DNA of 64,000 nt from Neoconidiobolus thromboides FSU 785 (Eukaryota; Entomophthoromycota; Entomophthoromycetes; Entomophthorales; Neoconidiobolaceae), in NCBI GenBank assembly GCA_025603075.1, contig MU626360.1:1-64000 (forward strand). Direction: 5' to 3'. The notes under the pieces are model-generated. The model saw only the letters and a list, made by a program, of their open reading frames with translations, was not told where the DNA came from and did no database searches. Made by a program: the position numbers and the translations under genes. Positions 8,052-64,000 of the stretch are shown here, one piece after another (the stretch's first letter is position 1; each line of letters opens with the position of its first letter).

Positions 8052-8286
8052 ATTATTTCGTTATTATTTTTACATTTTCCTATTTTTTATTTCAATAAAG
8101 CTTTTTCATCAAGTGTTAGATTATTGTTTACTAGAGTTTAATTTATTACATTATAAGTTTACTGTATCAAAGTTTTCACTTTTATTCTAAAGAATTATTT
8201 TAAACTTAAATAGATAAGTAGAATACAAGTACATAATAAATTCTAAGGATTTAATTTAGGTTAAAAATAGTTATAGTTTATAGATA

Positions 8287-8387
8287 TGGGGATAAATTTT
8301 TTAGTTTCATTCCTTTTTCCATTTTTTAAGCGCTATTTGAGTGGAAAGATTGTTAGTAAAACTCTTAAACAAGAAAATACATCTCCA
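8287..8387 (+). mobile_element. 100-bp MITE-like element, copy 1
   Basis: Ends TGGGGATA...CATCTCCA flanked by TA on both sides. The core CTTTTTCCA/AAGCGC/GTGGAAAG is intact. Confidence 0.85.
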
Positions 8388-8546
8388 TATATTAAAAAAA
8401 CATTCTGCTTTAACTATTAACTGCTCTATTCAGCTTTATCCATATGTCTTCAACTTTAAATTAAATAAACATTAAGCATAAATCAAAATACCACCCTCAA
8501 TCGTGAAAAAGAATAAAAAAGAGTTTTGAATCTATTGTTAGATACA

Positions 8547-8642
8547 TGGGGATGTGTTTTTTTGAGAATTTTACTAACAAATCTTTCCACTCAAATAGCA
8601 TTTAAAAAATGAAAAATAATGAAATCAAAAAAAACGTCCCCA
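8547..8642 (-). mobile_element. 100-bp MITE-like element, copy 2
   Basis: Reverse orientation: TGGGGATGTG at the left end, GTCCCCA at the right, with an inner inverted CCACTCAAATAG. The core AAGCGC is mutated. Confidence 0.8.
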
Positions 8643-8757
8643 TATAGTTTAGCAATTTATTCAAAAAAATCAAAATCGCAATACTACATCAATCTAGAAA
8701 AAAATTGATAGGTGTAAATTAACCACTTTTCTATCTTTGTTTTTATTTTCTAATATT

Positions 8758-8857
8758 TGGGGCTGTTTTTTTTGATTTCATTATTTTTCCGTTTTTTAAG
8801 CACTATTTGAGTGGAAAATTTGTTAGTAAAATTCTTAAACACAAAAATACAGCCTCA
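8758..8857 (+). mobile_element. 100-bp MITE-like element, copy 3
   Basis: TGGGGCTG...CAGCCTCA ends carry a compensating change on both arms (GCTG pairs with CAGC). Flanks are TT and TT, so the target duplication need not be TA. Confidence 0.83.
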
Positions 8858-9061
8858 TTTAATTTTTTTGATGTAAACTAAAGTTCGAAATAAAATGCCA
8901 CTACTGGAAACTAAGTTTTATAATAAGTAGAAATTTAATAACTTGCTTTGATACTCATATTTCGACATCTAATGACGTTGATAAAATGATCGAAAAATGG
9001 TTGAGGTAGGAGTATGTTTTAATATGAGATTACAACCTTTGGACTATTGTTTATCTTTAAA

Positions 9062-9990
9062 TTAACTAAGGCTTTTATATACAGCTATGATTATAATAAT
9101 TATAACTACAATAATAATTGCAGCAAGTATATATTTTTTCTAATAAAAATAAGCAATTATAAAACAAAAAAAATATCGAATACCTTTCTTGAGCTTTTAG
9201 CCAATTGAGTTGCTTGTACAAGCTGTTCATTAACCTCAACCAAATTTTCATTAGCTTCTACAACATGAGCTTCTATCTTTTCAATCAATATCTCTTGCTT
9301 TTCAACCATATATTGCATTTCATGATATAAATTATTCAACTCTTCAATACTTTTAACAATTTTTTGAATATCCATATGCCTATCTTGTACTTCTTTTAAT
9401 GCTCTTTTGGCCTCTCCCCCGCGTGCTGATTGTAAGACCGATTGTGCAAATACTGATTCATTATTGTCTCCGTCAATTGCTTCTTTAATTTCTTCTTCAG
9501 TTGCCTCTGGACGTACAATACGATATTGTCTTTCTATCCTTGCTTTTACTTGTTGACGATGCTTTTGTTCAACTTTTTGATAACTAGTAATACTATCCAT
9601 AAACTGTTTTTTTAAAGTATTGTATTGAGTTTTACGAATATTATCTTCAGAAGGATCAGTCAACTTGGTATCAATTAAATGTTGTAAACAGGTTTTTATC
9701 AGTTGCATTAAAACATGGGCTTCAGATGTCAATTGGTCTGTTTTATCACTGTGTTCTTTCTTATGTTGGTCTGATGCTACGTTTAAGGCTTGTTCATTTA
9801 AAATACTTATTTTTGCTATTATGGATTTAAAATCTTTAATATCACTTTTGATTTTCGAAATATCTGATAAATAAGAGGAATTATCTTCTGGTATGAATGA
9901 GAGAGAAGTTTGATAAATATTAGTCATTTCTAAATTATTGGAATTATTTTTAGTGGCTGCCTTTGCTTCTGCTAACCTGTCTCGTCCCAT
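9062..9990 (-). CDS. Qa-SNARE syntaxin, plasma-membrane (Sso1/Sso2) type
   Basis: Two exons: 9184-9990 and 9062-9139, separated by a 44-nt GT-AG intron. The 294-residue protein would lose its membrane anchor if the intron were read through. The N-terminal Habc-like helical region covers about residues 35-160. The SNARE motif follows (DRHMDIQKIVKSIEELNNLY, then VEKQEILIEKIEAHV, where the Q in EKQE is the likely zero-layer glutamine). The second exon encodes the C-terminal anchor, a run of about 15 Ile/Val/Ala residues ending VYKSLS. Family knowledge: such SNAREs fuse secretory vesicles with the plasma membrane. Two tandem copies of a 147-bp block lie just upstream of the start. Confidence 0.88.
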
Positions 9991-10038
9991 TTTTAATTAT
10001 AGAAAATATTGAAATATCAGGAGGTTTAATATAAAAAT

Positions 10039-10332
10039 ATTGAAAAAGGTTTTTGAGTAGTTTTTAAATGAGCTATTTTGGGTTCATATAGGACTAATAA
10101 CAAATTTATTGGAAATATTAGTTGTTACTATACTCTTAAAGAACATAATCATTATTAGCTTAATTCGGTAATTTACTCTAAATATATTGAAAAAGGTTTT
10201 TGAGTAGTTTTTAAATGAGCTATTTTGGGTTCATATAGAACTAGTAACAAATTTATTAGAAATATTAGTTGTTACTATATTCTTAAAGAACATAATCATT
10301 ATTAGCTTAATTCGGTAATTTACTCTAAATAT
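10039..10332. repeat. Tandem duplication, two 147-bp units
   Basis: Unit 1 is 10039-10185 and unit 2 is 10186-10332, with four mismatches seen. Each begins ATTGAAAAAGGTTTTTGAG and ends TACTCTAAATAT. They lie 48 bp upstream of the syntaxin ATG, so the copy nearer the gene probably carries its promoter. Confidence 0.93.
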
Positions 10333-10736
10333 ATTTTTAACATTTTTATATCCCTTTTACAATGATTTATTTTAAATCTTATCTTTGAAATATCCTTAAC
10401 TATAAGCTTTGTACAGGTACCACACCAAGTTAATATTTGCGGATTATCCGAGAAATCTTTCATCTTTCTCTCTATTCGTAGAATGCAGGATTGCCTGGAA
10501 TAAAATTTTAATTTTGCGTGACAAGATCGAGTAAGGACAAGAAAGGAAAAGACATTCGCCTTCTTTGGACGAGTAGTCTATTTGTTGGGTTTTATTTTAT
10601 AGATTATACTTGGGAATTTTGCTCTTTCGAAAGCAAAAAACTATAAATTTATTTGAAGTGTTGCTACTTTACCAATTTAAACATGAACTGGAGATTTAAG
10701 TTGCAGTTGCTAGATATAAAAATAGAAATAACTATA

Positions 10737-10835
10737 TGGAGGTGTTTTTTTGACTTCATTATTTTTTCCATTTTTTAAGCACTATTTGAATGGAAAATTT
10801 GTTAGTAAAATTTTTAAACACAAAATACATTCCCA
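10737..10835 (+). mobile_element. 100-bp MITE-like element, copy 4
   Basis: TGGAGGTG...CATTCCCA with TA flanks on both sides; core TTTTTTCCA/AAGCAC/TGGAAAAT. Confidence 0.83.
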
Positions 10836-11103
10836 TATCTAGATTCAGTTAGTTCAAAAACTAAAATGCCCAATTCATGTTTAAATTGAGTCAGTAGTGC
10901 AATTGTAATAAATTACTCCCTAGTAGAGTATTTCTGTTAAAAATCACATATAGTACTATTGTGGTGTATTTGGTTCTAATAAAAAGATTCTTTAAATCCC
11001 TGTATTCAACGTTATAACGATCAAACTATTATGTTGAGTGCATTTTGCTCAAAATTTTATAATTTTGCTAGATATAAAAATATACCTAAGATCCTATTTC
11101 ATA

Positions 11104-11204
11104 TAGGGAGAGGTATTTTTTGATCCCATCGCTTTTCCATTTTTCAAGCGCTGTTTGAATAGAATAATTGTTGGTAAAAATTTTAAACAAAAAATATACC
11201 TCCA
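11104..11204 (+). mobile_element. 100-bp MITE-like element, copy 5 (diverged)
   Basis: TAGGGAGAGGTA...TATACCTCCA ends, CTTTTCCA core and AAGCGC present; flanked by TA. The two ends still match each other although both have changed. Confidence 0.75.
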
Positions 11205-11606
11205 TATATAAATTTCAGAGCTATATCAAACTATTCCATCGTGATCTTTACGTTCCCTTCTTTACTATTGCCTGATATCCGCTTCATTTATCTTCTAAGA
11301 AATGGCCACCCTTGCTACAAACAATCTAGAAATAATAGGATTTAAAACTGGAACAAATAAAGATCACTATATTTAGTAACCGTGTTTATTTCAATTTATT
11401 TATTTTAAATACAATACATCTAAAGTTATACTGCGTCGTCTATTAATTATTTGACTATCATTATCGGCTCATCATATTGCTCCCTAACAAGGACAATAGT
11501 GTTTCTCATTATCTTATTTCTTACTGCTTGATATATCATACCTATTAAGGCGTAATATATTACAGTACCTCTCTTGGGCCATTCATCAGTCAATTTTATA
11601 TATATA

Positions 11607-11706
11607 TGGGAGTGTTTTTTTGGCTTCATTACTTTTTCCATCTTTTAAGCGCTATTTGAGTGGAAAAATAATTAGTAAAATTCTTAAATACAAAAATACA
11701 TCGCTA
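11607..11706 (+). mobile_element. 100-bp MITE-like element, copy 6
   Basis: TGGGAGTG...CATCGCTA with TA flanks. The core ACTTTTTCCA, AAGCGC and TGGAAAAA are all present. Confidence 0.84.
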
Positions 11707-12008
11707 TATAATACTTTATATTTCATAGAGTTACACATATGAATCCAACGGTTGATTTTATTAAAAGTCATTTTTTTGATAAGAAACCAAGCTCATTTCA
11801 TGATTTCTACTAAAATAATAATATTTAAAAATAACAATAGAAATTTTGAAAATTATTTAATTATTTATTTAGTATACATGTTAGTAAAAGCTAATTACAT
11901 AATCTAAATTATCAACCCTTATTGCGATTGATCCTGTTTAAGATCAATTGATATAAAACTAGTACTAAAAATAAGGCTATATCTATCCATTAATCATTAT
12001 TTCCTCGT

Positions 12009-14901: not shown

Positions 14902-14974
14902 GCCTTCTTGGCTCAGTTGGCAGAGCGTCCGCCTAGTAAGCGGAAGGTCATTGGTTCGATTCCGATAGAAGGCA
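14902..14974 (+). tRNA. tRNA-Thr (AGT)
   Basis: Full cloverleaf: acceptor GCCTTCT/AGAAGGC with discriminator A, D-stem GCTC/GAGC, anticodon stem TCCGC/GCGGA around loop CTAGTAA (anticodon AGT), T-arm ATTGG-TTCGATT-CCGAT. No intron. T-rich Pol III terminator runs follow at about 14983-14994. Confidence 0.95.
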
Positions 14975-15951
14975 TATTCATATTTTCTTTTTACTGATTT
15001 TCACCCTACCAGCCTGTCTCAATAAAACTTTTAAGCTTTTATAGTTTTTTTTCGACAATAATCGAAAGTGGACAAGATTAAAATCTAGTACAAAAGTTTT
15101 TCAGTTAAAACTACACTAATCTTAATTATGATATTTTGCAATCATAAAATTTTTTCAAAGTTTGGTTAATATTTTTTAAAACAGCTATAATAGGACAAAA
15201 AGCCTGTAAATGCTGAGATTTTATGGTCACACAGTATTTGTAGCTTATTACTATAAAAGCTTTTTATCGTAGTAATTTTATTTTAAATTTATATAGAATA
15301 AGATTTTCGGCAACTTTAAATAAAAGATTCAACAATAACATCACATCTATTTACTTTTAAAGTTAAAATTGTGAAGCCTGGTACTCAATGATTGGAGTCA
15401 AAAACAGCTATTGCCTGGTTGACTACACTGTAAGTCGAAAGGTCTTAGTTCATGTGACTAATATAGACTTAGATTATGAAGAATACCACATAATAGGCTA
15501 CAGACCATGTAAAACAAATACAATAGACAATACTAATATAAAATCTACGTAAAATACTATTAAGTAAACTTAGTGGCTTTATTAAATGTACGAGATATCA
15601 GGGAATAATTTAGTTAAAAAGCCTCGGAGCTACTATGTTCTAGGGTCTCTTTTATATTCCAACAAGTATGGATATCAAAACGGGGAGATAATATCCTTCG
15701 GAGTCATGGGATAGAAATTCACATAACAAATCAAAATAAGAGCATGGGATTGATTGCCTTTAAACTAGAGAGCATAATAGCTTAGGTGATTATTGTGCTA
15801 TAGTTAACCATGAGGCTGACAAAGTGATATTTCACAACTAAACATACTTTTTTAAATGTTAGTATAGAATTTACGCAATTTATACAATTTTTTTAAAAGA
15901 CTTTTTTATTGCTATATTTATTTTGTTTTCAAGTAATTTTTCTTAATTATA

Positions 15952-16050
15952 TGAGGCTGTTTTTTTTAGTTTCATTATTTTTCCATTTTTTAAGCGCTAT
16001 TTGAGTGGAAAGATTGTAGTAAAATTCTTAAACAAAAAAACACATCCCCA
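15952..16050 (+). mobile_element. 100-bp MITE-like element, copy 7
   Basis: TGAGGCTG...CATCCCCA, TA on both sides. It shares with copy 13 the shortened GATTGTAGTAAAA, so the two are sister copies. Confidence 0.88.
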
Positions 16051-16065
16051 TATACTAAATTCACA

Positions 16066-16161
16066 TGGTGATGTTTTTTTGTGTTTAAAAACTTTACCAA
16101 CAGTTTTTCCACCCAAATAGTGCTTAAAGAATAAAAAGGTGAGGTCAAAAAAACACCTTCG
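16066..16161 (-). mobile_element. 100-bp MITE-like element, copy 8
   Basis: Reverse orientation, starting 15 bp after copy 7: TGGTGATG at the left, diverged ACACCTTCG at the right. The core CCACCCAAATAGTGCTTAAAG is present in form. Confidence 0.75.
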
Positions 16162-19822: not shown

Positions 19823-19921
19823 CGGGGATGTATTTTTGTGTTTAAGAATTTTACTAACAAATTTTCCATTCAAATAGTGCTTAAAAGATGGAAAAAGCGA
19901 TGAAGCTAAAAAACACCCCCA
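19823..19921 (-). mobile_element. 100-bp MITE-like element, copy 11
   Basis: Reverse orientation: CGGGGATGTATTTTTGTG at the left, ACACCCCCA at the right, flanked by AA on both sides. The inner TTTTCCATTCAAATAG is intact. Confidence 0.83.
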
Positions 19922-21528: not shown

Positions 21529-23968
21529 TATTAATTAGATAAACTTATTTCTTTTCTCAAAAAAATAATCAAAAGTTATGATAAATAAAAGAATTGAAGT
21601 ATTATATATATATTAATTACTTCTTTAATCTAGTGCCATGCTTTCCGTTATTTAAACTGCTCTCAATATTAAAACTCAACATTTCTTTCAACGGGTAGAA
21701 TTTGCTACTCTATTTTTGGAAACTGAGCATTAATCGGTTTAAATTTCGAGTATACAGTTACTTCAACTCTATTTAACTTAATTTGCGAAGACTTTTAGAA
21801 CTGATTATTTGTTTATTTAGCTTCTTTTAACCTTAATTTGCAAACTTGGTATATTTTATCTAAAAAAATTCTTAAATGAACAGTTAAATATGTCACAATA
21901 AAGTTGCATCAATTGAAATTATTAAAGGAATATTAATTGGTAGTTAAAAATATCACTCTACGTTACAATCTAGAAATTGAGATTGAAAATTTAATGCTCC
22001 TATTAAACAAGTTGACATTAAATATAGCCATCATTTTCAAGGCAATTTTTAAAATGGAATTCAATGTTTAAAGATGTTCTGGCCTTCAAATCCAAAGTTT
22101 CTTTGGTAAGCCTTATATATCCTTTAACTACTATCGATTCTATACTATTTGAACATTAAACTGACTAAAAATCACTTTTACAATGTCATCATTAAAATGC
22201 TTTTTATTACAATTAATGCCTATTTATAGGTTTATTTTCTAATGAGAAAGTTTATGTCAAGAACTATACAAAGCACATATTAGCTAAATTAGTACCCCAA
22301 TCATTTATGCCTTATATTATTGAATTTGTACTTAAAAAGTAGATAAAATACTAAAGAAATTATGTTATAACCTATATAATAGGACAACATATTTCAATTT
22401 GATTTTATAATATATCTGTAATTGAATTAACTTATATTCAAATCTACCTTATAATTACTATAATGACTCAGACATTTAAGAAGCAAAACTTTTAAAGTCG
22501 AACATTCACTAAGTTTAACTCCATATAAACTTGAAAGTTTTATCATCACAAAACTAATGTACAAACTAAGAGATGATGCCAGTATTATGAAACTGAAGCA
22601 TTAAGGTGTTAATAAAACATTATTATCAGTAAATTTTAAAAGAATTTTTTATTAAGAAAAATGTTACAAGCTAAGCTTAATTTTTATTGATTTTTATTAT
22701 AATTCATACTGCTAATAGCTTATACTATTACTTTGTTATATAGATTTTTAAAATGATATAACAGCTAAAATATATATATTTGATGATGAAACTTGAGGAT
22801 GCTAAAAATAATTAATAACCAAAATATGAAGATGTATTTTTGTGTTTAAGAATTTTACCAACAAATTTTCCACTTAAATAGCGCTTGAAAAATGGAAAAA
22901 ATAATGAAACTGAAAAAAACACTCCCATATTCTTCAAAAATGTCTTAATTATAGTTCTAGACAAATAAATATAAAAAAATACAAATGAAAAATAGTTGAT
23001 TTTTTATAGCTAATAATTAATTAAAATACAATAAAATTAAATAAAACCAAACTAGAATATAGTAACATTCAATAGTTACAAATATAAGAGGTTTTATTCC
23101 CAGGACCTTTATTTCCATGGTGTGTTTTTGATATTAGTAGATATGGCAAACATACACTATCTACTATTTCAAAACAATGTGATTTGTATTAAGTTTCAAA
23201 AAAATAAAGACAAAGCGTAATACATCATAATTACCTGATATTCGATATAAATTTCCGACCTAATGTTTATTTAAATAAACTATTTATTAGATCTTATTTT
23301 TATATTTTTTATGTAAACAAGATTAAATTAACCACAATGCTATGCCTGAATTTACGAATCAGAGATAAATTATTGTATTTACAATTATTAAATAATTCTC
23401 TTATTGTTTATCTTTACGTTATTTAAAAACTTTGAGTTATTTAACAGAATTTTGTACAAACTTTGTTTTGTAAGCTGTAATAGCTACTGGAAAGTAAATT
23501 AAAATAGTGCTAACAACCCAAAATTATAGTAATAAAATTAAAATCGAGATCATAAAAGAGAGATCATTTCAATGAAAGATGATTTCAAAATAAACTAAAA
23601 TATTTATTTGATGAAAAATAGGAGGTAAATAAAAGGTTAATTTAAACTAATCTAATATCATAGCAAATAGCATAAACATAAATTAAGGTAAAATACTAAA
23701 AACTTGCTTAAAAAAAAGATATAGAAATAATAAACAGTGGTGACAAAATGACGACATAAAGAAGGTCAGACGGCTAATAGGTGGATTTAGAAAAAATAAT
23801 AAATAAATAAACAAACATTTCACAACTAAAAATAACAAAATATTTATTATTATGAATCCTACAATTTATAACATTACACAAAACTTGAAAACAAAAAAAG
23901 TGAAAACACAACTCAAATGAGCTTACTAATAGATTATGATTTTAATTTTTTCCTCTATGATACCAAAA
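21529..23968. other. Long gene-poor stretch
   Basis: 2.4 kb of AT-rich DNA with one element copy (22827). No coding frame, tRNA or further repeat could be supported. Confidence 0.55.
22827..22927 (-). mobile_element. 100-bp MITE-like element, copy 12
   Basis: Reverse orientation: TGAAGATGTATTTTTGTG at the left, ACACTCCCA at the right, TA flanks. AGCGCTTGAAAAATGG core. Confidence 0.83.
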
Positions 23969-38965: not shown

Positions 38966-40297
38966 ATGAGTTTAACCTTTGAGTTTCTATCTGAGATTTT
39001 ATTAGAAGAAATTTTCAAATATGTGAGTCCAATCGAATTATTTAATCTACAATTCTTAAACAAATATCTATTTAAAGTTGTTAACAATGTTATTAAATTC
39101 AATTTAACTTATTCAATTTATAATGGATACAAATTTAAGGAATACTATGAGTATCAAAATAAATTTATTAAGGAAAATGGAGGACTAATGAAACATGTCA
39201 GTATAGAAGGTAGGACGATTGAATGCTTAAAAGATTTTTTGAATGTAACATCTATAGAATATACACAACTATATAATAATGAAAATAATGATCAGAACAA
39301 CAATAAACTAAAGATGCAACTACCAGGATTAAAGAAATTAGTTATACATTCATCTAATTACGCACAAACGTTGATGTTCTTTAAAGATTACTTAAAGCAA
39401 CTTGAAGTAGTTCAGATTAATAGTCATAATTTTACTATTGAAGATATTATCACAAATTTGAATCCAGCCAAGTTAGGATCACTTGTATTAAATGCAAATG
39501 GTAGTTCTTTATACCTTCAGGGATTAGATATTATCAAAACAAAATTCAATAAGCTAAAGAAATTACAATTGAAGGCAGATAAATATATTTATTCTAGTGA
39601 GAATAACCCAAAAATAAATTTCACTTCTAGTTTAGAATTGAAAATTGAAGGAAAATTTAACAGAGATTTTAGTTTAGACATTCAATATTTTGGTAACTTA
39701 CAGAATTTAAAAAGTGTGATGTTGTTACATAGATATGGTGAATTCTTTAATAGAATAAATAAACGTGTCAACATAAAATCATTAAAGATATGTAATAAGG
39801 TTATTTTGGGGTATTTTGATTCAAGGCATTCGATTGATTACGACTTTTTAAGATTACCCAATCTTAAGCAGATTTATGTTAGTAGTTTAGATAATGAATT
39901 ATTAAAATCAATTTTTTTTTTATCAAATATTAAAACAATTCAAGTTCATGTTTTCCATACTTTTGGTTTTTATAGAGAAATGTTCTATAATATTAGTGAT
40001 GCAAATAGTAAGAATCTTTATACAGAAAAGCGTGGATTGATCCAATGTCCATTTGTAAAAGAAATTGAAGTTAATATTTTTGCTAGTTCTTATGTTAATT
40101 TTCTTCTTTTTTTATCTTTATTCCCAAACCTTGAGATACTTAAGATTACTGATTTTTATTTAATGGGTATAGTAGACACAGAAGTAGAGCTTAAACTAAC
40201 TACTCCGCTGTTATTACTTGTTACTATCCCAGATGAATCAAATTTAGCTTATGAAGAAGTGGAAAAGATCCCAATGTTAAATTGGATTAAATTGTAA
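38966..40297 (+). CDS. F-box/LRR-like protein (intact family member)
   Basis: Single exon, 443 residues. The N-terminal ~45 residues are an F-box: FEFLSEILLEEIFKYVSPIE then LFNLQFLNKYLFKVV. The rest is a run of leucine-rich, asparagine-rich strands (LPGLKKLVIHSSN, LKKLQLKADK, LPNLKQIYVSSLDNE, FPNLEILKITDF), an irregular LRR solenoid. The C-terminus PMLNWIKL recurs in the paralogues. Family knowledge: F-box proteins bind SKP1 and present substrates to an SCF ubiquitin ligase; which target is unknown. It is the only undamaged member seen here; at least four decayed relatives lie at 41.5, 44.0, 51.3 and 52.8 kb. It has lower-complexity AT-biased codons like the accessory region around it. Confidence 0.8.
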   Translation: MSLTFEFLSEILLEEIFKYVSPIELFNLQFLNKYLFKVVNNVIKFNLTYSIYNGYKFKEYYEYQNKFIKENGGLMKHVSIEGRTIECLKDFLNVTSIEYTQLYNNENNDQNNNKLKMQLPGLKKLVIHSSNYAQTLMFFKDYLKQLEVVQINSHNFTIEDIITNLNPAKLGSLVLNANGSSLYLQGLDIIKTKFNKLKKLQLKADKYIYSSENNPKINFTSSLELKIEGKFNRDFSLDIQYFGNLQNLKSVMLLHRYGEFFNRINKRVNIKSLKICNKVILGYFDSRHSIDYDFLRLPNLKQIYVSSLDNELLKSIFFLSNIKTIQVHVFHTFGFYREMFYNISDANSKNLYTEKRGLIQCPFVKEIEVNIFASSYVNFLLFLSLFPNLEILKITDFYLMGIVDTEVELKLTTPLLLLVTIPDESNLAYEEVEKIPMLNWIKL

Positions 40298-40688: not shown

Positions 40689-40788
40689 TGGGGCTGTTTT
40701 TTTTTAGTTTCATTATTTTTCCATTTTTTAAGCGCTATTTGAGTGGAAAGATTGTAGTAAAATTCTTAAACAAAAAAACACATCCCCA
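40689..40788 (+). mobile_element. 100-bp MITE-like element, copy 13
   Basis: TGGGGCTG...CATCCCCA with TA flanks. It is almost identical to copy 7 (one substitution and one T in a homopolymer by eye) over the whole length. Confidence 0.9.
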
Positions 40789-41481: not shown

Positions 41482-42861
41482 ATGAATATAATATTTGAGT
41501 GTTTATCTGAGATTTTACTAGAACAGGTATTTGAATATTTGAATATTTGAATATTTAGACTCAGCTAAGTTGTTTGATCTATGTTTCTTAAATGGGTATT
41601 TGCTTAAGCTTACAAATAATGCTATTAATTAGAATTTAATCTATTTGATTTACAATCAACATAACGATGATGAATTTAAAGACTTTCAAGAAAGATCTAT
41701 AAGGGACAACAGATCATTAATTGAGCATATAAATATAAATGGTGATATAGTTAGATATCTAAATAGTTGTCCAAATATAATATCTATAGTCTATATTCGA
41801 ACAACTAATAATAATCATAATGATAATACCAGTGTTTTTTTATATTTTTGGCAGTAACTACAATGGAATAAAGGCTGAATTACCAGGATCAAAAGGGCTA
41901 ATCATAGATTCATCTAATTATTTACAACCCTTAACATATTTCAACAGGTATTTGAACCAAACGGAGTTTCTTAAAGTCTATGCAATACTATTGCTACAAA
42001 TATCATTAATCCTTTAAATCCAATTGTATCGAAAGTATTAATATTAAGTTTTGGTTATAAGTTACAGCTTTACAGGTTAGATATTATTAAGAAATTCAAG
42101 AAGTTGAGCTTATTATGATTACAGTTAAACAGCTCTGTTTGCACCTCTATTGTATTTAATTCTAAAATGAACTTTATTTCTAAAATTAGCAATTAGTGCA
42201 AAATTTGATAACCTTGATCTTAAATGTTTGGTGATTTAAATGAATTCATAAGTATAAACTTTTTAAATCACAGTACTCAATATTTTAATGTTGGTAATGA
42301 AACTAATAGAATGAATTTAATCATAAGCTGTAATGTTATTGCTTTGAGTGAGTTTGATTCAAATCATGTTATTCCTGATGATTTTTTAAAGCTAATAACG
42401 CTAAAAATAGTTTGTATTACTTATAAAGGCTTTGTTATGTTTAATTTCACCATTGACAAATATTCAAGGCACTCATTTTAGTAGTGTGTATTTCAATGTT
42501 GGGTATGTATTCAATAAATTAATTGAATTGGGAGCGATATTTATAATAAATAGTACGATTCAATAAATTAATTGAATTGGGAGCGATATTTATAATAAAT
42601 AGTACGATTCAATTAAATGGAGTTTTAGAAAAAAGATAATAATTAATCATTTTGGCTATTCACTCGATATATTCTTATGCTTTTATCCCTTTTTCTAAAT
42701 CTTGAGCAGCTTACAATTTCTCATTTTAAAGTAGAAGCCAAAAATACAAGAGTTTAGTATAATATCAACATTAGGTTATTACTTATTACACTTATTACGC
42801 TCAAATCTAACCTAACTTCTTATGAAGGGCTTGAAAAAATCATATTAAATTGAATAAAAAT
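41482..42861 (+). pseudogene. F-box/LRR pseudogene 1
   Basis: It starts like the intact gene (MNIIFECLSEILLEQVFEYL) but the frame breaks inside the F-box. A threefold repeat of TTTGAATA lies there (about 41528-41551). Later segments in different frames still match (PGSKGLIIDSSNY, FDSNHVIPDDFLKL). The tail ends in a mutated ILNWIKL-like stretch near 42850. Many stops and shifts are present and a 49-bp tandem duplication lies inside it. No functional protein is expected. Confidence 0.8.
42509..42606. repeat. Perfect tandem duplication, two 49-bp units
   Basis: Units 42509-42557 and 42558-42606 are identical. Each begins ATTCAATAAATTAATTGAAT. A third partial start (ATTCAATT) follows at 42607. 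It lies within F-box pseudogene 1. Confidence 0.95.
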
Positions 42862-43737: not shown

Positions 43738-43829
43738 TGGGGATGTTTTTTGGTTTTATTACTTTTTCCATCTTTTAAGTACTATTTACGTGGAAAAATT
43801 GTTAGTAAAATTCTTGAAATACATCCCCA
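43738..43829 (+). mobile_element. 100-bp MITE-like element, copy 16
   Basis: TGGGGATGT...ACATCCCCA flanked by AT on both sides; the segment AACACAAA before the right arm is deleted (92 bp). Confidence 0.86.
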
Positions 43830-43995: not shown

Positions 43996-45021
43996 AAATT
44001 TGAGTATTTATCCAAAATTTTATTATAAGGTATTTTCAAATATGTGAACCTAATTGAGTCATTGGACCTGTGTTTTTTAAATATTTGCTAAAAGCTATAG
44101 GCAAAGCTATCAAATTTAAGTTAACTCATTCGATTTATAATCAATATAAGTGTAATGGATATCAAGGCTATCAAGAGAACTTTATTAAAGAAAATGGAAA
44201 GCTAATGGGGCATGTAAATACAGCTGACAAAACACTTGAAAATTCAAATCATTATTCAAACATTGCATCTATAGTCTATAAATAATTAATTATTGTATAC
44301 AAAAAAGGGTTTGATAATTATACCAAGATAGAAATTAAGCGTCCACAGGTAAAAAGATTAAATATGTCCTCAATAATTACACATATTCATTAACTTTATT
44401 TAATAACTATTTAAACCAACTTGAAGTGTTTAAACTTAATAGAGATAATTCCAAAATTAAAGACAGTATTAAAGATTTAAACCCAAATAAATTAAAGTCA
44501 CTTATATTGAATACAAGTCATATATTATTGTACCTTTATGGATTATATACTATTAAAATAAGATTTAATAAGTTAAAAGTGTTATATTCAAGTACTCAGG
44601 AACATTTAGACGTTAGAGAAAATAGCTCAGAGATAGGCTTTATTTCTAGCTTGGGATCAAAAATTGTAAGAGTATTTACTTTTAATTTTAATGTCGCTTC
44701 CTTTAGCAACTTATGGAATTTAAAAAGTATAGCATCATTTATTAGATAAGTGGGTTGATAAAATATGTATTTGTAGAACAAATCGAGATAGATTATTTTC
44801 ATAGCATATTTGAAAACTTCTTTCATTTCTTATAACTAACTCTATTTCTAAATCTTAAGCTATTTGAAACTAAGGAGATTTTGCCTCTTGATGTAGGCTC
44901 AATATTTGAACTTAAGCTTATTACTCCACTATTATTGTTTGGCAGTATTTTATCCGACCCAGATCTAGATTATTATAATCAAATAGAAAGTATTATAGTA
45001 TTAGATTGGATAAAGCTATAA
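43996..45021 (+). pseudogene. F-box/LRR pseudogene 2
   Basis: The start codon is lost (the F-box begins FEYLSKILL). Frames shift around 44070 and 44290, but long pieces remain. These are KYLLKAIGKAIKFKLTHSIY, DLNPNKLKSLILNTSHILLY and a C-terminus ITPLLLFGS...VLDWIKL ending at TAA 45019-45021. The middle third of the LRR region is deleted compared with the intact gene. Confidence 0.8.
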
Positions 45022-45038: not shown

Positions 45039-45141
45039 TAAGGCTGTATTTTTGTGCTTAAGAATTTTACTAACAAATTTTCTACTCAAATAATGTGCTT
45101 AAAATTGGAAAAAGTAATGAAGCCAAAAAAAACACCCCTCA
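45039..45141 (-). mobile_element. 100-bp MITE-like element, copy 17
   Basis: Reverse orientation: TAAGGCTGTATTTTTGTG at the left, ACACCCCTCA at the right. It lies 18 bp after F-box pseudogene 2. Confidence 0.78.
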
Positions 45142-46980: not shown

Positions 46981-48084
46981 ATGAAATATTTGTTACTTAC
47001 ATCTTTAATATTAAATTTAGTGGCTAGTCATGCTACTATGGAAAAACCAGCTATTCGTGGAAATACCGAAAATTGGGGTTTCTGTGATAGTGAAGAAGGT
47101 TGTCCTGGACCTTGTGAAACACCCAAAGATAAAGTAGATTATACTTATCGTCAAAAAGAAGTTTATCAAAGAGGAGCAAAGATTCCAGTTGAATGGAAAA
47201 GACTTAATCACCCTGGAGGTTTTGTAAGACTTGCTATTGTACCAACCGAACAAAGTGATGATAAACAAGCTTTTGATCAAAATGTTTACCAATATTCTTG
47301 TTTTGAATCTAATTGTAAACAAGATGACAATATTGATGATTCTTTCCATGGTTACATGGCTGGACCTAACTTTGCTAATAATCATCCCCAATGTAGTACT
47401 GAATTCGTTATTCCACCACATTTAGAAGATGGTGATTATACTTTACAATGGATGTGGTTCTCTGGTGGCGTTAACACTGGTGATCGTTTCAGAGCCTTTG
47501 GTAATTATTATGCTTGTGCTGATTTAAAAATTCGTGGTGGAAATAAAGGTGAAAAACCACCAGTAGCTTTTATTGGTAAAGATGCTGTAACTGAAGATCC
47601 AAAACAATGTCGATTCTGGGGTAAGAATGATGAATATTCTTGTGAAAAGAGTTATGATGCAAGTAATCCAGATAAATGTCCAAGAGGTGGCCCTCGTCTT
47701 GGTGCACCTTCTGCTTTCTCTGTTGGTATTTCTGGTGAACAGTCTAATAGAGGTATCCCATTTGAAGCTCCAGAATGGTACAAACAAAAATATCCACAAG
47801 CTGATGTTATGCCACAAAGTCCAGTAAATTGGACTCCTCCAGAAAAGTATAACCCTAATCCATATAATCAAGGTGCTCCATTTATTGAAACTAATCATAA
47901 CAAACAACAAAATCAAGAACAAAAGCCTGTAGAACAAAAGCCTGTAGAGCAACAAAAAAATGGACAAGATTCAGTTTGGACCCCACCTCCAGGTTATAAT
48001 CCATACGCTGAAGGACAACCATTAGCTGGTAAAACTCCAGTTTGGACCCCACCTCCAGGTTATAATCCATATGGCCAAAATTAA
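46981..48084 (+). CDS. Secreted LPMO-like protein (histidine-brace, chitin-binding type-4-like)
   Basis: Single exon, 367 residues. The signal peptide is residues 1-16; cleavage after VAS would leave His17 as residue 1, the key first ligand of the copper histidine brace in lytic polysaccharide monooxygenases. The domain (to about residue 185) has a CxxxxxCPGPC cluster, NHPGGFVRLAIVPTE, YSCFESNCKQ, HPQCSTEFVIPPHLEDGDYT, LQWMWFSGGV and FGNYYACADLKI. These suit an Ig-like LPMO fold with a second His in HPQC. Similar proteins are common in Mucoromycota and Zoopagomycota. After a Cys-containing linker, the tail holds three WTPP units. The last two are VWTPPPGYNPY repeats 35 codons apart, and a Gln/Lys-rich hinge lies between. 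It might oxidise chitin or glucan; the substrate is not known from sequence. Confidence 0.75.
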   Translation: MKYLLLTSLILNLVASHATMEKPAIRGNTENWGFCDSEEGCPGPCETPKDKVDYTYRQKEVYQRGAKIPVEWKRLNHPGGFVRLAIVPTEQSDDKQAFDQNVYQYSCFESNCKQDDNIDDSFHGYMAGPNFANNHPQCSTEFVIPPHLEDGDYTLQWMWFSGGVNTGDRFRAFGNYYACADLKIRGGNKGEKPPVAFIGKDAVTEDPKQCRFWGKNDEYSCEKSYDASNPDKCPRGGPRLGAPSAFSVGISGEQSNRGIPFEAPEWYKQKYPQADVMPQSPVNWTPPEKYNPNPYNQGAPFIETNHNKQQNQEQKPVEQKPVEQQKNGQDSVWTPPPGYNPYAEGQPLAGKTPVWTPPPGYNPYGQN

Positions 48085-51329: not shown

Positions 51330-52707
51330 TTTAGATGGAACAATGGCAAATAACAATAGAGGGGTAATAAGCTCATATTTAATTATTATATACATATCCG
51401 TTAGTTTAAAATATTTATTTTCAGTGTTCTAATATTTAGGAATATGGATAAAAGAAGGAGAGATTTATTATCAAAGTATTACTAAAATGATTAATTTTAA
51501 TCTACTTTACAAATGTATATTTGATTGAGTCATATTTTTTAGTATAAAGATGAGTTTTGTTATAATTGCAGCTATTGTAGAATAAATAATAGTAAAAATA
51601 ATAGTCATGAAGATCACCAAATGTGTAATAATTTGGATATTTAATAATAATAAAATATTGAACTCGATAAGCTCATTTGTTAAGCTATTGACATGAATTT
51701 GCTTCATATTTGGTAATTTCAAAAAATTATAATATATTAATATTTTAAATCAAAAGATTCTAATCCTATAGCACAATATTTGTTTAAATTTAATATTATT
51801 ACATTTGCTTGTGGTGTCAAAAAATGCACTGATATTATCTAATAGTGTCACGCTTTTCAGTTGTTTTAAGTTTCCTGAATAACTAATATTAAAATTAAAG
51901 TGAAATTTTCTTATAATTTTTAACTCTATGTTGGAAACAAAATTTATTTTAGATTATTTTCAGTAAATAAATATATTCATGAGTACTTGATTGAACTATA
52001 ACACTTTTAACTCATTAAATTTCGTTTTAATAGCATCTAATCCACAAAGGCTCAAATATCTATTATTTGGGGATGTTTTTTTGATTTCATTACTTTTCCA
52101 TTTTTTAAGCGCTATCTAAGTAGAAAGATTGTTAGTAAAATTCTTAAACACAAAAATACATCCCTATTTGGATTTAATATAAGCAACTTTGACTTGCTTG
52201 AGTTTAAATCTTTAATAATACCCTTAATAGTCAAATTACTTTTGTTACCCCCGAATTCTTTAAACTGATTTAAATGGCTATTAAATAATTATTAAACAGT
52301 ATCAATAATTGTGTATAATTGAATAATAATAATCAACTTTCTTAATTCGGCCAGTTTAATTTCTAGCTTGATATTTTCTCCATTAAAAAATGTTTATATA
52401 TAATCAATCTGTGGAAATTATGTTTGAACAGTCATTTAAATATTCAATTGTTCTATCATTCTATCATTTAGGTTGTTATGCTTTGTTAGTGATCCATTTT
52501 CTCTAATAAGGTTATTTCGGTAGCTATTATATCTCTTATATTTATGTTGATAATAAATTGAATGAGCTAAGTTGAACTTAATAACTTTCCTTACAATTTT
52601 GAACAGATGCCTATTTAAGAAATACAAGTTAAATAAATTGATCAGGTCCACATATTTAAAAATCTCTTCTAATAGAATTTGAGATAGATACTCAGAGTCA
52701 AACTCAT
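51330..52707 (-). pseudogene. F-box/LRR pseudogene 3, split by an element insertion
   Basis: The former ATG is at 52707. A one-base loss about a dozen bases later shifts the frame, but the F-box (YLSQILLEEIFKYVDLINLF, FNLYFLNRHLFKIV) is intact in the next frame. The LRR part continues in broken frames (IIKDLNSSK...LILNPN, CGLDAIKTKFNEL, KLPNMKQIHVNSLTNEL) to an LITPLLL-like end near 51340. The 100-bp element at 52068-52166 sits exactly inside the LRR coding segment. Confidence 0.8.
52068..52166 (+). mobile_element. 100-bp MITE-like element, copy 20, inserted in a coding relic
   Basis: TGGGGATGT...ACATCCCTA, flanked by TT on both sides. Removing the element and one TT restores an alignment of equal length with the intact F-box gene across the site. 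Confidence 0.9.
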
Positions 52708-54153: not shown

Positions 54154-54252
54154 TGTGGAGATGTATTTTTGTGTTTAACAATTTTATCAACAGTTTTTCC
54201 GCTCAAATAGCACTTAAAAAATGGAAAAAGTAATGAAACCAAAACATCCCCA
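54154..54252 (-). mobile_element. 100-bp MITE-like element, copy 21
   Basis: Reverse orientation: TGTGGAGATG...CATCCCCA with TA flanks. The core TTTTTCCGCTCAAATAG is present. Confidence 0.86.
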
Positions 54253-54299
54253 TATAACAGACTGAAATTTATTCGATAGTACACTATCTTCATGAAAGC

Positions 54300-57175: not shown

Positions 57176-57210
57176 ATAAACTGTTTTTTTATGCAACTTA
57201 CTTATAACCT

Positions 57211-59215: not shown

Positions 59216-60411
59216 ATGGGATTAAGAAAAGCTAATACAACGTTCAAAGCCTTGAATCAAGTATTTAAAAGGAGCATAACCAATAATGCTAATGAAAAAC
59301 AAGCCGTCCTTGAAGAATTGGGTAAAAGTAAAGTGGCTGAAAGAAGTAACAGGATTACGATATCTACCACGGATTTAAGACCTAGTCCATTTAATATTAG
59401 TTTGGAAAGTAAACAAAGGAAAGCCGATTTATTGGGTTTGAGGAATTTTATTCCAGGAGATATAGAAAAGCCAAAGAAAGTTGAAAAGGCTGAGTTGAAA
59501 TTGGATGAGGCTAGTAATCAACTTGAAAGGAAGAAACTGTAAGTTTAAAAAAAAAAATTGAACTATAGTTTACTTAATCGTTTTTTAGTACTAGGAAAAT
59601 ACTAACTCCCTATTATCAAGATTTTCATGGTACTTTTTAATTTTACTTTTTAATTTTAAGATTTTATATTAATTTTCAGACATTCGTAATACCGATGGTA
59701 AGCTTTTCGAAGCAATAGAAAAAGAAGTAGCCGAAAAGGTAAGGTGTTTTGACTAAAAAGAACAAAAGCAATAACAGAAAACAAATCCAGGAATCCTTTT
59801 ATATGCCAAACATGGAGTTACAGCCTTTAAGTAATCAAAATGTACATAAAAAATCAAATTCAAAAGTGGAATTAATGGATATGTTGGATAAAAAAGTAAG
59901 CTTAGTTGCATTTTATTTATCTCAATATGGGGAAAATCAAGCTCAAACCTTCGTTCATCCTTTTTTAAACTTTTTAAAATCGGTACCAAAAGAAAATCAA
60001 AACGAACTACAGTTAATTGAAGTAAGTTTAATGTATAGCTGTTTAATTTAAGGTGTTTATTTATTATAGATTAATGTGTCTGAACAATGGATGAAGGGGC
60101 TTATATCACGCTTGTTTCAATCTAAAATACGTAATCAACTAAATGAAGAAAGACAAGTAAGTTTTTTAATAGTATACAATTATAATAGAGATTGATTGTT
60201 TATATCTTAATAGTTAAATTATTTATTTAAATATGGAAGTATTGAACAAGTAAGAGAAAAGTTGGGAATGGTGAATGGGTTAATCGGTTATGTATTTTTG
60301 ATCGATAAAAATTCAAAAATTCGTTGGTATGCGAATGGAAATGCCACTAGTAATGAGATTACTACTTTATTAAGTTTGGCTAAACATCTTACATTGAATC
60401 CAAGGGCCTAG
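59216..60411 (+). CDS. ATP10: Mitochondrial ATPase assembly factor ATP10
   Basis: Start ATG 59216 (MGLRKANTTFKALNQVFKRS), a basic mitochondrial-type presequence; a frame extension to 59171 begins with TTG. Exons read TRKILTPYYQDFH, DIRNTDGKLFEAIEKEVAEK, then FYMPNMELQPLSNQN...KVSLVAFYLSQYGENQ. INVSEQWMKGLISRLFQSKI follows, then GLIGYVFLIDKNSKIRWYAN and TAG at 60409-60411. The P-x-ILTPYY, YMPNM, V.V..W...L and GYVFLID..KIRW pattern is ATP10, which helps assemble the Fo sector (Atp6 ring) of ATP synthase. The intron near 59740-59775 is problematic. The frame is kept only by a 34-nt GT-AG intron (59742-59775), shorter than any other here, so this junction may be wrong. Confidence 0.82.
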
Positions 60412-60630
60412 TACTGTTTATAAGCTCTTCATTCTATTCTTTAAATTTAAAAAATAATAATATTAGATGTTACATCATAGGTTTCATATTTTTAATGTTT
60501 TACTATTTAATTAATATTTATAATACAGTCATATTGACCTATACAAATTTTAAACAATATAAAAAGTGATTACTGTTTAAATAAAAAAAGTTAAATTTTA
60601 TTCGAATCTTAGTTACAAAGTGCTATTAAA

Positions 60631-61923
60631 TTATTCCCTTTCAAAGATAGCAGCCATACCCATACCAGTACCAATACACATAGAGATAGCTCCAAGTTTC
60701 TTGTTTTGTCTTTTAAGTTCTGGGAAGAGGGTGGCAACTTGGCGAGCTCCAGTACAACCTAAAGGATGACCAAGAGCAATAGCTCCTCCTTTTGGATTAA
60801 CTTTGTTATAATCTAAACCAAGTTTTTCGATACTGTAAACAGCTTGAGATGCAAAGGCTTCATTTAACTCAACGATTTCAATATCTTGGACTTGAACTCC
60901 GGCTTTTTTAGCAGCAGCTGGAATTGCATAAGCTGGTCCAACACCCATAATATGTGGTGGTACACCAACTACAGCTGAAGAAACATATTTACCTAAGATA
61001 GGTAATTTGAGTTGCTCAGCTTTGCTACGACGCATTAATAAGACAGCGGCAGCACCATCGGATACTTGAGAAGCGTTACCGGCAGTGGTGAAACCATCCT
61101 TAGAGAAGGCTGGTTTAAGTTTATTCAAAGTTTCAAAGGTGGTTTCTGGGCGGATACCATCATCTTTAGTTATAGTAACCTTCTTTTCATTACCTTCTTT
61201 ATCAAGAACAATGGTTTCAACTGGGATGATTTCCTCATCGAAATATCCATTTTTTTGTGCAAGTGCAGCTTTTTGATGAGAAGTAGCAGCAAATTTATCT
61301 TGTTTTTCACGTGATACTTTGAATTCTTTAGCTACATTTTCTGAGGTGATACTAATTAACAAATATAAAAATTTAAGTAACACATATATATAATAAACTT
61401 ACCCCATAGGTAAAAGAGATTCTGCAGCCTGTTTAGTAGAGTTTACAGCTTCAGAGATAGAAGTTGGTTGAGCTTGAGCACCATAATGCATGGTCATAGA
61501 TTCAACACCAGCAGCAATACCAACATCAATCAAGTTAGCTTGAATTGAGGAAGCGATGGCAGCAACAGCTTGAAGACCAGAAGAGCATTGTCGGTTAACA
61601 GAATAAATAGGAACAGAGTCTGGGATACCGGCATGTAAAGAGGCCATACGAGACATAGTGGCAGCAGTACCAGTTAATACATTACCTACAGCTATGTCTT
61701 CAACTATTTTTGGATCAATCTTACTCTTTTGAATAACAGCTTTGAATACGGCGGACAATAAGTCTTCGATATGAGTATCTTTGAAACCACCTTTACGTGC
61801 GCGAGTGATTGGGGTACGCAAAGCAGCTATGATAACTACATCGTCACCTGATTTGTGACCTACCTTAGTAGCGTTTTTGGTAGATAACTGATTGCTGATT
61901 TGGTTTAATCTTTGAGAAGCCAT
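60631..61923 (-). CDS. Peroxisomal 3-ketoacyl-CoA thiolase
   Basis: Two exons, 61403-61923 and 60631-61351, with a 51-nt intron; 413 residues. It performs the last step of peroxisomal fatty-acid beta-oxidation. Residues 5-13 (RLNQISNQL) match the PTS2 consensus R-L-x5-Q-L, so import by PEX7 is expected. Active-site C113 in VNRQCSSGLQA, the His in GGAIALGHPLGCTGARQ and the second Cys in CIGTGMGMA are all present. Full length and intact. The N-terminal signal distinguishes it from cytosolic acetyl-CoA acetyltransferases. Confidence 0.95.
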
Positions 61924-63141
61924 TTTAAAATTAAGTTTTAAATTTCAATTGACGTATATTTATACTTTTAGTTTTAACTCCTAATTAAATTAATGAGGTT
62001 GATTGGTTGCCTATAATTTACTATTTACTAATCCTTACCAAGTATTCATTGTCTATTTGAACACTTATTGGCTGGTTCTGGATTCAATTGCAAGTGCCAT
62101 TCATTCTCTCAGCTGATTTTTATTAAGCAGTTAAGAATGGAAAACCATGTGAAAAAAGGATATTAGTTCCCTCAAGCATGGCTTCAATTAACTGAATGCG
62201 GGAGTAGCAGAGTGAGCATATTATAATAATATTTATTCAGAAGATACACTATAATACTATTCAAAAAATAGTAGTTTTAAAAGAGATTCTAAGTTTAAAA
62301 CTAATATATTAAAACTAAAATCTACGCTTAGAATGAGTTTATTAGATTTAATCACTAGCAGGTTTTAATTACTAGCAATTGTTCTCTATTGTTTAATAGA
62401 ATAATCCAATTTCGCAAAAATAAATTGTCATTTTGAAACGCAAATTTAAATTTTAGCCTTGATGTTTATATTTTCTATAATTATAGAGATTTCTCATATT
62501 TTTAGTTACTTCTCATTTAATCCACCTCTTTTCAAACTTTGTTTGTATTAGGTTTTTCCAAAAATTATTTGAATTTTTCAAAAGTTCAAAACAATAGTGG
62601 TGTAGAATTGAGATAGTATTTAGATTTTATACATTTTTATTTATATATATAATTTGTACTAATGCAACCAATGACTATATGCTTTTTAATAATAAAGGAA
62701 GGAATTTATGGAAACCTAAGATTACACAATAGAAAAAAACATTTTAAAGATCATAAATGAAAACAGTTTATTAGGCTGATTTATGTTTCAGAAATTTTAT
62801 AACTAAAAAAGCAGTCAAAGGTAGCTAAATAACCACTGCAGCGGTTGAAGAAATTTATTAAAATGAACACTGTCTTCAAACATTAAGGAAATCTACTGAT
62901 GGGACTGACAGCATACTATTTAATACATGCACAAAAAACACCTGCTATACAAAAGCCAATCTACTACATATTAAAAAAATTGAGTGAAAAGATAAGAATA
63001 TCAAGTATCCATTCTTATAATCAATTTTTTTTCAGTGTTCAACCATCTTAAAATTAAAGTCAATATTTAAATAAATTATCTATTTTATTAAAACTATATC
63101 CCGGAAAACAACATCAATATTTAATTATATCATTAACAACA
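61924..63141. other. Gene-poor stretch, nothing recognised
   Basis: 1.2 kb of AT-rich DNA upstream of the thiolase. I see no element copy, tRNA or frame. Confidence 0.5.
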
Positions 63142-63756
63142 TTAAGCCCTTTCTAATATAAAAAGCCATTTGAAATAAATCTTTATCTTGGAGATAAAGA
63201 TATGTGAATATTTTCTACAATAATCATCTATGAAATCAACCACCAAAATATGACAAAAAAATATCAAAACCAAAGGAGTAAGTAAGCCTAAGATAATAAT
63301 TCCAATTAGGCTTTGAAAGATAATGCCAAGGATTGCCCCAGTACTAATACCGACACAAAAAAATTTTAAAATTTGAATAAAAAACTTGTAACGGATAGCT
63401 AAAAGACCAAGGGTGAAACTGAATAATGTAACAAGCACTAGTAATATCACCAAAGGAACTCTAGCTTTATCTAAGGGCTCAATATTTGTTAAAAATTTCT
63501 CAAAAGTTAAATCCAGATGGGTGTTTATACTTATGAATAGTACTCCTATTGTAAGCAATATATACCAGATTACAAAAGTCACTGTTAGTATGTACACTAA
63601 ATTTTTGAAGCGTTGGGATAAGGCCAATAGTATGAATAAAATAAATAAAAGATTGAAAAACCAAAAAGAGATTATTTTTGAAGTTGGATTTATGTTAATA
63701 AATAGAGAGTATAGTACAGTCAGTATAATTTGTTTGAAGAAAAGAGTTAGAACCAT
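63142..63756 (-). CDS. Multi-pass membrane protein of unknown function
   Basis: Single frame of 204 residues with about six hydrophobic segments (around 5-20, 28-46, 53-75, 98-118, 128-148 and 150-172) and very few charged residues between them. It ends in a basic, amphipathic tail (DDYCRKYSHIFISKIKIYFK). An acidic/hydrophilic loop lies at about residues 78-97. I do not recognise the family. The frame is AT-biased but the membrane pattern is regular enough to favour a real gene. Confidence 0.5.
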   Translation of the reverse strand: MVLTLFFKQIILTVLYSLFININPTSKIISFWFFNLLFILFILLALSQRFKNLVYILTVTFVIWYILLTIGVLFISINTHLDLTFEKFLTNIEPLDKARVPLVILLVLVTLFSFTLGLLAIRYKFFIQILKFFCVGISTGAILGIIFQSLIGIIILGLLTPLVLIFFCHILVVDFIDDYCRKYSHIFISKIKIYFKWLFILERA

Positions 63757-63957
63757 TACATAACAAATATTGATAAATAAATTGAAAGATCAAATCTAAA
63801 AGATTATTTATTTGTTTTTATATAATTCACTTCATAAAGTTCTATTAATCTAAAAGAACTTTAATAAATTAATTTTTATTATTACAAGTCAGAGCTATTC
63901 GCTCTCTTTTTGTGAGCTTTAGTTTTGAATAGGAATTGATTTATCAAATTTACTATA
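63757..63957. other. Intergenic end of window
   Basis: Short AT-rich stretch between the membrane protein start and element copy 22. Confidence 0.4.
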
Positions 63958-64000
63958 TGGAGGTTTTTTTTTGCTTCATTATTTTTTCCATCTTTTAAGC
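63958..64000 (+). mobile_element. 100-bp MITE-like element, copy 22 (cut by the window end)
   Basis: TGGAGGTTTTTTTTTGC, then TTTTTTCCATCTTTTAAGC at the last bases; preceded by TA. The right half lies outside the window. Confidence 0.82.

What the first reader, a model, noticed from the sequence alone, without database searches (positions are those of the whole stretch)
8285..64000. A dispersed ~100-bp hairpin element family: 22 copies in one 64-kb window
Seen directly: 22 copies in both orientations, ends TGGGGATGT and ACATCCCCA. An inner inverted pair TTTTTCCA/TGGAAAAA surrounds a centre with AAGCGC. No copy can code for a protein. Most are 92-101 bp and flanked by a 2-bp repeat (TA in most, TT at 8758 and 52068, AA at 19823, AT at 43738). 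This is the architecture of a MITE. Unlike classic Tc1/mariner MITEs, the target is not always TA. Density is about one per 3 kb overall, but none lies at 22.9-40.7 kb or 54.3-63.9 kb. The parent transposase is not in the window. I do not know a described family with these ends.
Basis: partly seen in the sequence, partly recalled or inferred. Interest (0 to 1): 0.8.

Follow-up and report, generated by a model that had tools for sequence, protein, structure and literature searches.

The report
Relaxed-target MITE swarm in a fungus
The repeated ~100-base hairpin elements are a large family of tiny jumping DNA pieces that make no protein, copy two target bases on insertion, and, unlike the best-known kind with two-base copies, do not insist that those bases be TA; their source enzyme was not found.

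Summary
In detail: a profile finds 22 copies in the window, 13 + and 9 -. The family is genome-wide: 764 exact hits of an internal 17-mer in 23.1 Mb, control 0; I estimate 4,000-7,000 copies. In 156 near-full-length copies exactly two flanking columns covary as direct repeats (z 7.0, 7.3), so the target site duplication (TSD) is 2 bp: TA/TA in 87 of 155, identical but not TA in 23 (3.0 expected), TA on one side only in 35, other mismatches 10. It sits in a palindrome ANNA[TA]TNNT. Paralogous empty sites and identical copies in unrelated flanks show insertion and recent movement. Rfam and compensatory changes give no good support for an RNA. No parent transposase was found; the most telling search did not complete (tool busy). 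In passing: none of 20 Tc1/IS630-type ORFs examined keeps the D-D-E triad, yet dN/dS is 0.20-0.47 (14 ORFs).

The parts
8289..8387 (+). MITE copy
   Evidence: nhmmer 87.0 bits, flanks read
8547..8640 (-). MITE copy, flanks TA / TG
   Evidence: nhmmer 59.0 bits
8760..8857 (+). MITE copy, TSD TT/TT
   Evidence: nhmmer 82.5 bits; TSD
10738..10835 (+). MITE copy
   Evidence: nhmmer 74.8 bits
11108..11204 (+). MITE copy
   Evidence: nhmmer 58.7 bits
11608..11706 (+). MITE copy
   Evidence: nhmmer 85.5 bits
15953..16050 (+). MITE copy, 99% identical to 40691-40788 with unrelated flanks
16066..16160 (-). MITE copy, flanks TA / TG
   Evidence: nhmmer 72.2 bits
16472..16568 (+). MITE copy, right end decayed
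   Evidence: nhmmer 48.0 bits
16658..16755 (+). MITE copy
   Evidence: nhmmer 73.5 bits
19823..19921 (-). MITE copy, TSD TT/TT in element orientation (AA on +)
   Evidence: nhmmer 92.1 bits; TSD
22827..22925 (-). MITE copy
   Evidence: nhmmer 83.8 bits
40691..40788 (+). MITE copy, twin of 15953-16050
   Evidence: nhmmer 82.5 bits
41132..41230 (-). MITE copy
   Evidence: nhmmer 84.3 bits
42994..43080 (-). MITE copy, diverged ends
   Evidence: nhmmer 51.8 bits
43738..43829 (+). MITE copy, TSD AT/AT
   Evidence: nhmmer 69.3 bits; TSD
45039..45138 (-). MITE copy
   Evidence: nhmmer 70.2 bits
48586..48684 (-). MITE copy
   Evidence: nhmmer 82.7 bits
50621..50719 (+). MITE copy
   Evidence: nhmmer 68.9 bits
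52069..52166 (+). MITE copy, TSD TT/TT; paralogous empty sites near 39.5 and 44.5 kb
   Evidence: nhmmer 83.3 bits; TSD; empty sites
54156..54254 (-). MITE copy
   Evidence: nhmmer 86.4 bits
63958..64000 (+). MITE copy cut by the window end
   Evidence: nhmmer 17.0 bits, E 3e-4
39410..39580 (-). paralogous empty site for the copy at 52069
   Evidence: 69% BLAST match across the joined flanks, alignment
44430..44600 (-). paralogous empty site for the copy at 52069
   Evidence: 77% BLAST match across the joined flanks, alignment

Best explanation
A high-copy family of miniature inverted-repeat transposable elements, about 100 bp (TGGGGATGT...ACATCCCCA), moved by cut-and-paste by a transposase supplied in trans. 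Shown: hundreds of places by exact match of one internal word (thousands by estimate), both orientations; defined ends; an exactly 2-bp target duplication; a palindromic target ANNA[TA]TNNT; TA preferred but not required; empty paralogous sites; identical copies in different places. Inferred: the transposase binds the short terminal repeats, cuts the target with a 2-base stagger and reads mainly the A and T that flank the stagger, not the stagger itself. Within this explanation the enzyme is or was most likely (about 0.45) a relaxed Tc1/mariner-IS630 type, next (about 0.2) an ISL2EU-like one, otherwise another or undescribed type. Its gene may be lost, unassembled or too diverged for the six family searches that were answered.
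For: Copies. TSD: of 12 offset column pairs only two covary as direct repeats (z 7.0, 7.3; the other ten at most 2.4), none of 12 as inverted (largest z 1.8); 23 of 155 identical non-TA against 3.0 expected, 0 of 20,000 shuffles. Target palindrome: A 93% and T 89% beside the TSD, A 64% and T 70% three bases further out. Non-TA insertions keep the outer A (21 of 23) and T (20 of 23) as TA ones do (82 and 84 of 87). Five paralogous empty-site alignments. Three copies identical over the 100 consensus columns with unrelated flanks, and another such pair. Length 84-109, median 100 bp. 1,289 of 1,628 mismatches to consensus are transitions and G/C positions are hit more (19%) than A/T (7%), as for neutral decay in an AT-rich genome.
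Against: No autonomous element or transposase with these ends was found. Apart from ends that belong to complete MITE copies, no facing pair of TGGGGATGT ends (up to 1 mismatch) frames a DDE_3 match in L009-L032; these loci reach about 1.5 kb to each side, less where a contig ends, and the two DDE_1 loci were not scanned. Terminal repeats are short (9 perfect bases in the consensus). 45 of 155 copies have unequal dinucleotides, taken as decay because their share grows with divergence. No nested insertion was found with one junction pattern (0 hits).
Confidence: 0.93

Rival explanations
1. An ordinary Tc1/mariner MITE: every insertion was at TA, and the non-TA flanks are later mutations.
For: TA/TA is the commonest class, 87 of 155; of the six transposase-related families searched, only Tc1/IS630-type DDE_3 is found in number, 24 matches.
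Against: Identical non-TA pairs exceed independence more than sevenfold (23 against 3.0) and are not rarer in the copies closest to consensus (5 of 25) than in the most diverged (4 of 30). For the TT copy at 52069 one empty paralog has TT, the other CT; the paralogs are only 69-77% alike, so this is weaker evidence.
Confidence: 0.04
2. A MITE of the ISL2EU/PHIS type, whose published target is A|AT|T with a 2-bp duplication (a sub-case of the best explanation).
For: 2-bp TSD flanked by conserved A and T, as reported for ISL2EU (PMC4482050, passages); ours has the same A..T frame.
Against: Our TSD is TA in 87 and AT in only 2 of the 110 identical pairs; DDE_Tnp_4 0 matches (control rang in 1 of 14, a bacterium) and YqaJ 0 matches (control rang in 2 of 14) in the genome.
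Confidence: 0.2
3. A structured RNA gene family or regulatory hairpin kept by selection.
For: The consensus folds better than shuffles as DNA (z -3.3); the inner pair has 6 double-compensated cells against 3.2 expected, reached in 19 of 300 shuffles.
Against: Outer pairs show no compensation (16 against 20.9 expected); of the five real copies folded z is -2.2, -1.2, -1.2, -0.5 and -3.7; Rfam gives only three tRNAs in the window; TSDs and empty sites show insertion.
Confidence: 0.02
4. A short retroposon (SINE).
For: High copy number, short length, no coding.
Against: Inverted ends, fixed 2-bp TSD, palindromic target and no A-rich tail at either end of the consensus.
Confidence: 0.01

Closest known systems
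Stowaway/Tc1-mariner MITEs
   Same: Short non-coding element, inverted ends, 2-bp TSD, TA favoured (recalled); palindromic target motifs that extend beyond the TSD are general for the Drosophila TIR families studied (PMC3276498, passages).
   Different: TA is not required: 23 of 110 identical TSDs are something else. [quoted passage not shown]
ISL2EU group of the PHIS superfamily
   Same: 2-bp TSD with a conserved A before and T after (PMC4482050, passages).
   Different: Reported TSD is AT, ours is mostly TA, then TT; no DDE_Tnp_4 or YqaJ match in the genome.
CMC (CACTA/Plavaka) elements
   Same: Superfamily with 2-4 bp TSDs (PMC4482050, passages).
   Different: Ends are not CACTA (motif recalled); Transposase_21 and Plavaka gave 0 matches, but no control rang, so absence is not shown.

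Membership tests
MITE | short, non-coding, many copies, in both orientations | tested here: met
MITE | terminal inverted repeats and fixed-length TSD | tested here: met
   9 perfect terminal bases in the consensus; TSD 2 bp only; empty sites
MITE | shares ends with an autonomous element | tested here: inconclusive
   none found around the 24 DDE_3 loci; the pattern search for ends without the MITE core did not complete
Tc1/mariner (Stowaway) MITE | 2-bp TSD | tested here: met
Tc1/mariner (Stowaway) MITE | TSD is TA | tested here: not met
   23 of 110 identical TSDs are not TA
Tc1/mariner (Stowaway) MITE | mobilised by a Tc1/mariner transposase | tested here: inconclusive
   24 DDE_3 and 2 DDE_1 matches in the genome; no DDE_3 locus is framed by these ends; Transposase_1 search unanswered
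ISL2EU | target A|AT|T with AT TSD | tested here: not met
   outer A and T met, but AT in 2 of 110 identical TSDs
ISL2EU | PHIS-type DDE transposase and YqaJ partner in the genome | tested here: inconclusive
   DDE_Tnp_4 and YqaJ 0 matches each; distant members or an unassembled copy could be missed, and a MITE can outlive its parent
Structured RNA family | compensatory base changes | tested here: not met
   outer pairs below shuffles (16 against 20.9), inner pairs weakly above (6 against 3.2, 19 of 300 shuffles reach it)

The most novel reading that the evidence does not exclude
The elements belong to an undescribed transposase lineage that recognises a palindromic frame A|NN|T (ANNA-NN-TNNT) and is tolerant of the two staggered bases, between Tc1/mariner (TA) and ISL2EU (A|AT|T); and the genome keeps a selected family of catalytically altered DD34E transposase proteins that could bind these ends and restrain or bookmark the thousands of copies.
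Probability: 0.15. Interest if true: 0.7.

Novelty: new variant of a known kind. Interest (0 to 1): 0.45.

Why it matters
It gives a rich natural data set on how a transposase can relax its TA requirement while keeping a palindromic target, which bears on how target rules change between superfamilies. It also marks an AT-rich, probably early-diverging fungal genome in which one MITE family makes up roughly 2-3% of the sequence (estimate) with identical, hence young, copies. For most specialists the MITE itself is ordinary; the target rule and the missing parent are what is worth following.

Tried and rejected
Tc1-type parent: the 24 DDE_3 loci were scanned for TGGGGATGT ends with up to 1 mismatch and for TA-flanked terminal repeats of at least 19 of 24 matches; only L012 gave a repeat pair, and it lies inside a MITE copy and a MITE remnant. 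In L018 two facing ends lie on either side of the DDE_3 match, but they belong to two complete MITE copies. DNA comparison shows these loci as diverged gene families, mostly 64-75% alike, not as transposon copies.

Other families: PF13359, PF18759, PF09588, PF02992 all 0 matches; for PF18759 and PF02992 no control rang, so nothing follows. PF01359 did not complete.

Nested insertion at one internal TA: 0 hits. Longer elements in the fetched loci: of 18 partial profile matches 12 are cut by a locus edge and 6 are internal and read as truncated or diverged copies; the left half in L116, which stops abruptly, was not followed further. Viral contigs: core sequence 0 exact hits (the tool may leave out this genome's own records). 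Rfam: three tRNAs only.

Literature: searches (and 25 for ISL2EU) listed no paper that by title or the start of the abstract describes this family; some searches showed only part of their hits (15 of 41, 15 of 16, 10 of 88, 10 of 21). Only open-licence papers are held and no Repbase search was possible.

Counts: the 156 copies are 20 from the window and 136 from loci chosen by an exact internal 17-mer, by similarity to a consensus or around transposase genes, so they lean to well-kept copies. Dropped before alignment: matches that do not span most of the profile, lie too near a locus edge or repeat a copy already taken (179 rows gave 156). Identities are over the 100 consensus columns; insertions are not counted. 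The junction search gave 239 rows, many of them to other MITE copies or to the same locus; five filled copies with paralogs were picked by eye; in L046 and L113 the left flank aligns poorly.
Full report
What is there. A profile from 13 seed copies finds 22 copies in the window, on both strands, one cut by the window end. The end 9-mer occurs 10 times against 0.1 expected. No ATG ORF of 100 aa or more overlaps any of the 22. The window lies in contig 103 of an unnamed 23,116,642-base genome of 392 contigs. A protein from the window (46981-48084), which I take for a chitin-active LPMO from recalled features, has its best named relatives in Kickxella, Entomophthora and Smittium among 15 hits, so the host is most likely an early-diverging fungus (inference).

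How many. One internal 17-mer has 764 exact hits, 0 for the reversed control. In stretches not chosen for the MITE, 6 such hits go with 45 copies (22 in the window, 23 distinct in the loci fetched around DDE_3 genes), which scales to about 5,700 copies, with a wide error because it rests on 6 hits. A consensus search had 4,232 first-look candidates, of which 40 were scored. Both figures are rough; 4,000-7,000 is my estimate.

Anatomy. The consensus of 156 near-full-length copies is 100 bp; copies run from 84 to 109 bp. Mean identity to consensus is 89%, mean pairwise identity 81%; 1,289 of 1,628 mismatches are transitions, and G/C positions are hit harder (19%) than A/T (7%). The first and last nine bases of the consensus are perfectly complementary. 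The consensus folds as a hairpin with z -3.3; five real copies have z from -0.5 to -3.7. Compensatory changes do not exceed shuffles in the outer stem and do so only weakly in the inner one.

Target. Columns left and right of the element were compared as direct repeats at 12 offsets. Two adjacent columns covary strongly (z 7.0 and 7.3); the next best is z 2.4. Of 155 copies, 87 have TA on both sides, 23 the same non-TA dinucleotide (TT 13, AA 4, AT 2, TC, AC, TG and CA 1 each), 35 TA on one side only and 10 other mismatches, 3 of these last being non-TA pairs that match as inverted repeats; 3.0 identical non-TA pairs are expected by shuffling and 0 of 20,000 shuffles reach 23. One of the 23, the CA copy in L037, has an end that does not look like the family's and may be misaligned. 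Outside the duplicated pair the target is palindromic: A 93% / T 89% next to it and A 64% / T 70% three bases further. Palindromic motifs that extend beyond the TSD were found for all the Drosophila TIR families of one study (PMC3276498, passages). The non-TA share does not grow with divergence (5 of 25, 9 of 55, 5 of 45, 4 of 30, from the class nearest the consensus to the farthest), while mismatched pairs do (4 of 25, 9 of 55, 16 of 45, 16 of 30). The non-TA duplications are thus best read as insertion events and the mismatched ones as decay.

Insertion and age. Five paralogous empty-site alignments were examined. The clearest is the window copy at 52069 (TSD TT): F-box-like paralogs (name recalled) near 39.5 and 44.5 kb lack the element and carry one dinucleotide, TT and CT, where the filled site has two. 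L093 and L021 agree with a single dinucleotide in the empty paralogs; L113 does on the right side, with a poor left flank; L046 aligns well on one side only. The paralogs are diverged, so the exact bases of the old target are not certain. Three copies on C208, C186 and C120 are identical over the consensus columns but have unrelated flanks, as have two copies on C267 and C17; the window pair 15953 and 40691 is 99% identical. Movement was therefore recent on this scale.

The missing parent. DDE_3 gives 24 matches and DDE_1 two; DDE_Tnp_4, Plavaka, YqaJ and Transposase_21 give none, the second and fourth without a working control. Apart from ends of complete MITE copies, no DDE_3 match is framed by the MITE ends within about 1.5 kb. 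A pattern meant to list MITE ends that are not followed by the MITE core did not complete, nor was a search for Transposase_1. Absence of a parent is therefore not shown.

Classification. The element works like a MITE and passes that test except for the unfound parent. It fails the TA rule of Stowaway/Tc1-mariner and the AT rule of ISL2EU, while sharing the 2-bp length with both and the A..T frame with ISL2EU (PMC4482050, passages). I therefore leave the superfamily open. No paper describing it came up in the listings, some of which were capped.

A side result. Of the 24 DDE_3 matches, the ORFs of 20 could be aligned (21 rows; L026 shows the same ORF as L015, and the matches of L026, L027, L031 and L032 themselves were not examined). 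None of the 20 keeps D-D-E at the aligned positions, taken from L010 and recalled motif positions; the common forms are N-D-E and D-N-E. For 14 of them, in two subfamilies (51 pairs), dN/dS is 0.20-0.47 with dS 0.67-1.73. Pfam names DDE_3 in both members scanned, and a Sleeping Beauty-type HTH below cut-off in one. This looks like a domesticated, catalytically altered transposase gene family; any link to the MITEs is speculation.

Noticed in passing
genome loci L009-L025, L028-L030 (C225, C162, C3, C1, C96, C18, C39 and others): A family of Tc1/IS630-type (DDE_3, 34 or so residues between the last two catalytic places) proteins with open frames; none of 20 distinct ORFs examined (of 24 matches) keeps the D-D-E triad (mostly N-D-E or D-N-E), and dN/dS in 51 pairs of 14 of them is 0.20-0.47: probably domesticated, with clusters on C225 and C162.
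   Followed up: partly
all 155 copies scored: Among identical non-TA duplications TT is seen 13 times and AA 4 times in element orientation; with a palindromic target they should be about equal, so orientation may be biased. Small numbers.
   Followed up: no
window 15345-15575; L093, L113, L130: A second dispersed repeat, about 74-82% alike between places, that itself holds MITE insertions.
   Followed up: no
window 38957, 41473, 43978 and about 52.8-53.6 kb: Related stretches of an F-box-like gene (family name recalled) around which several MITE copies sit.
   Followed up: no
window 10025-10318 and 42509-42606: Two tandem duplications, of 147 bp (95% alike) and 49 bp (100%).
   Followed up: no
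G000:C267:11558-11764: Two MITE copies back to back whose matches overlap by two bases, as if the second used the TSD of the first as its target.
   Followed up: no
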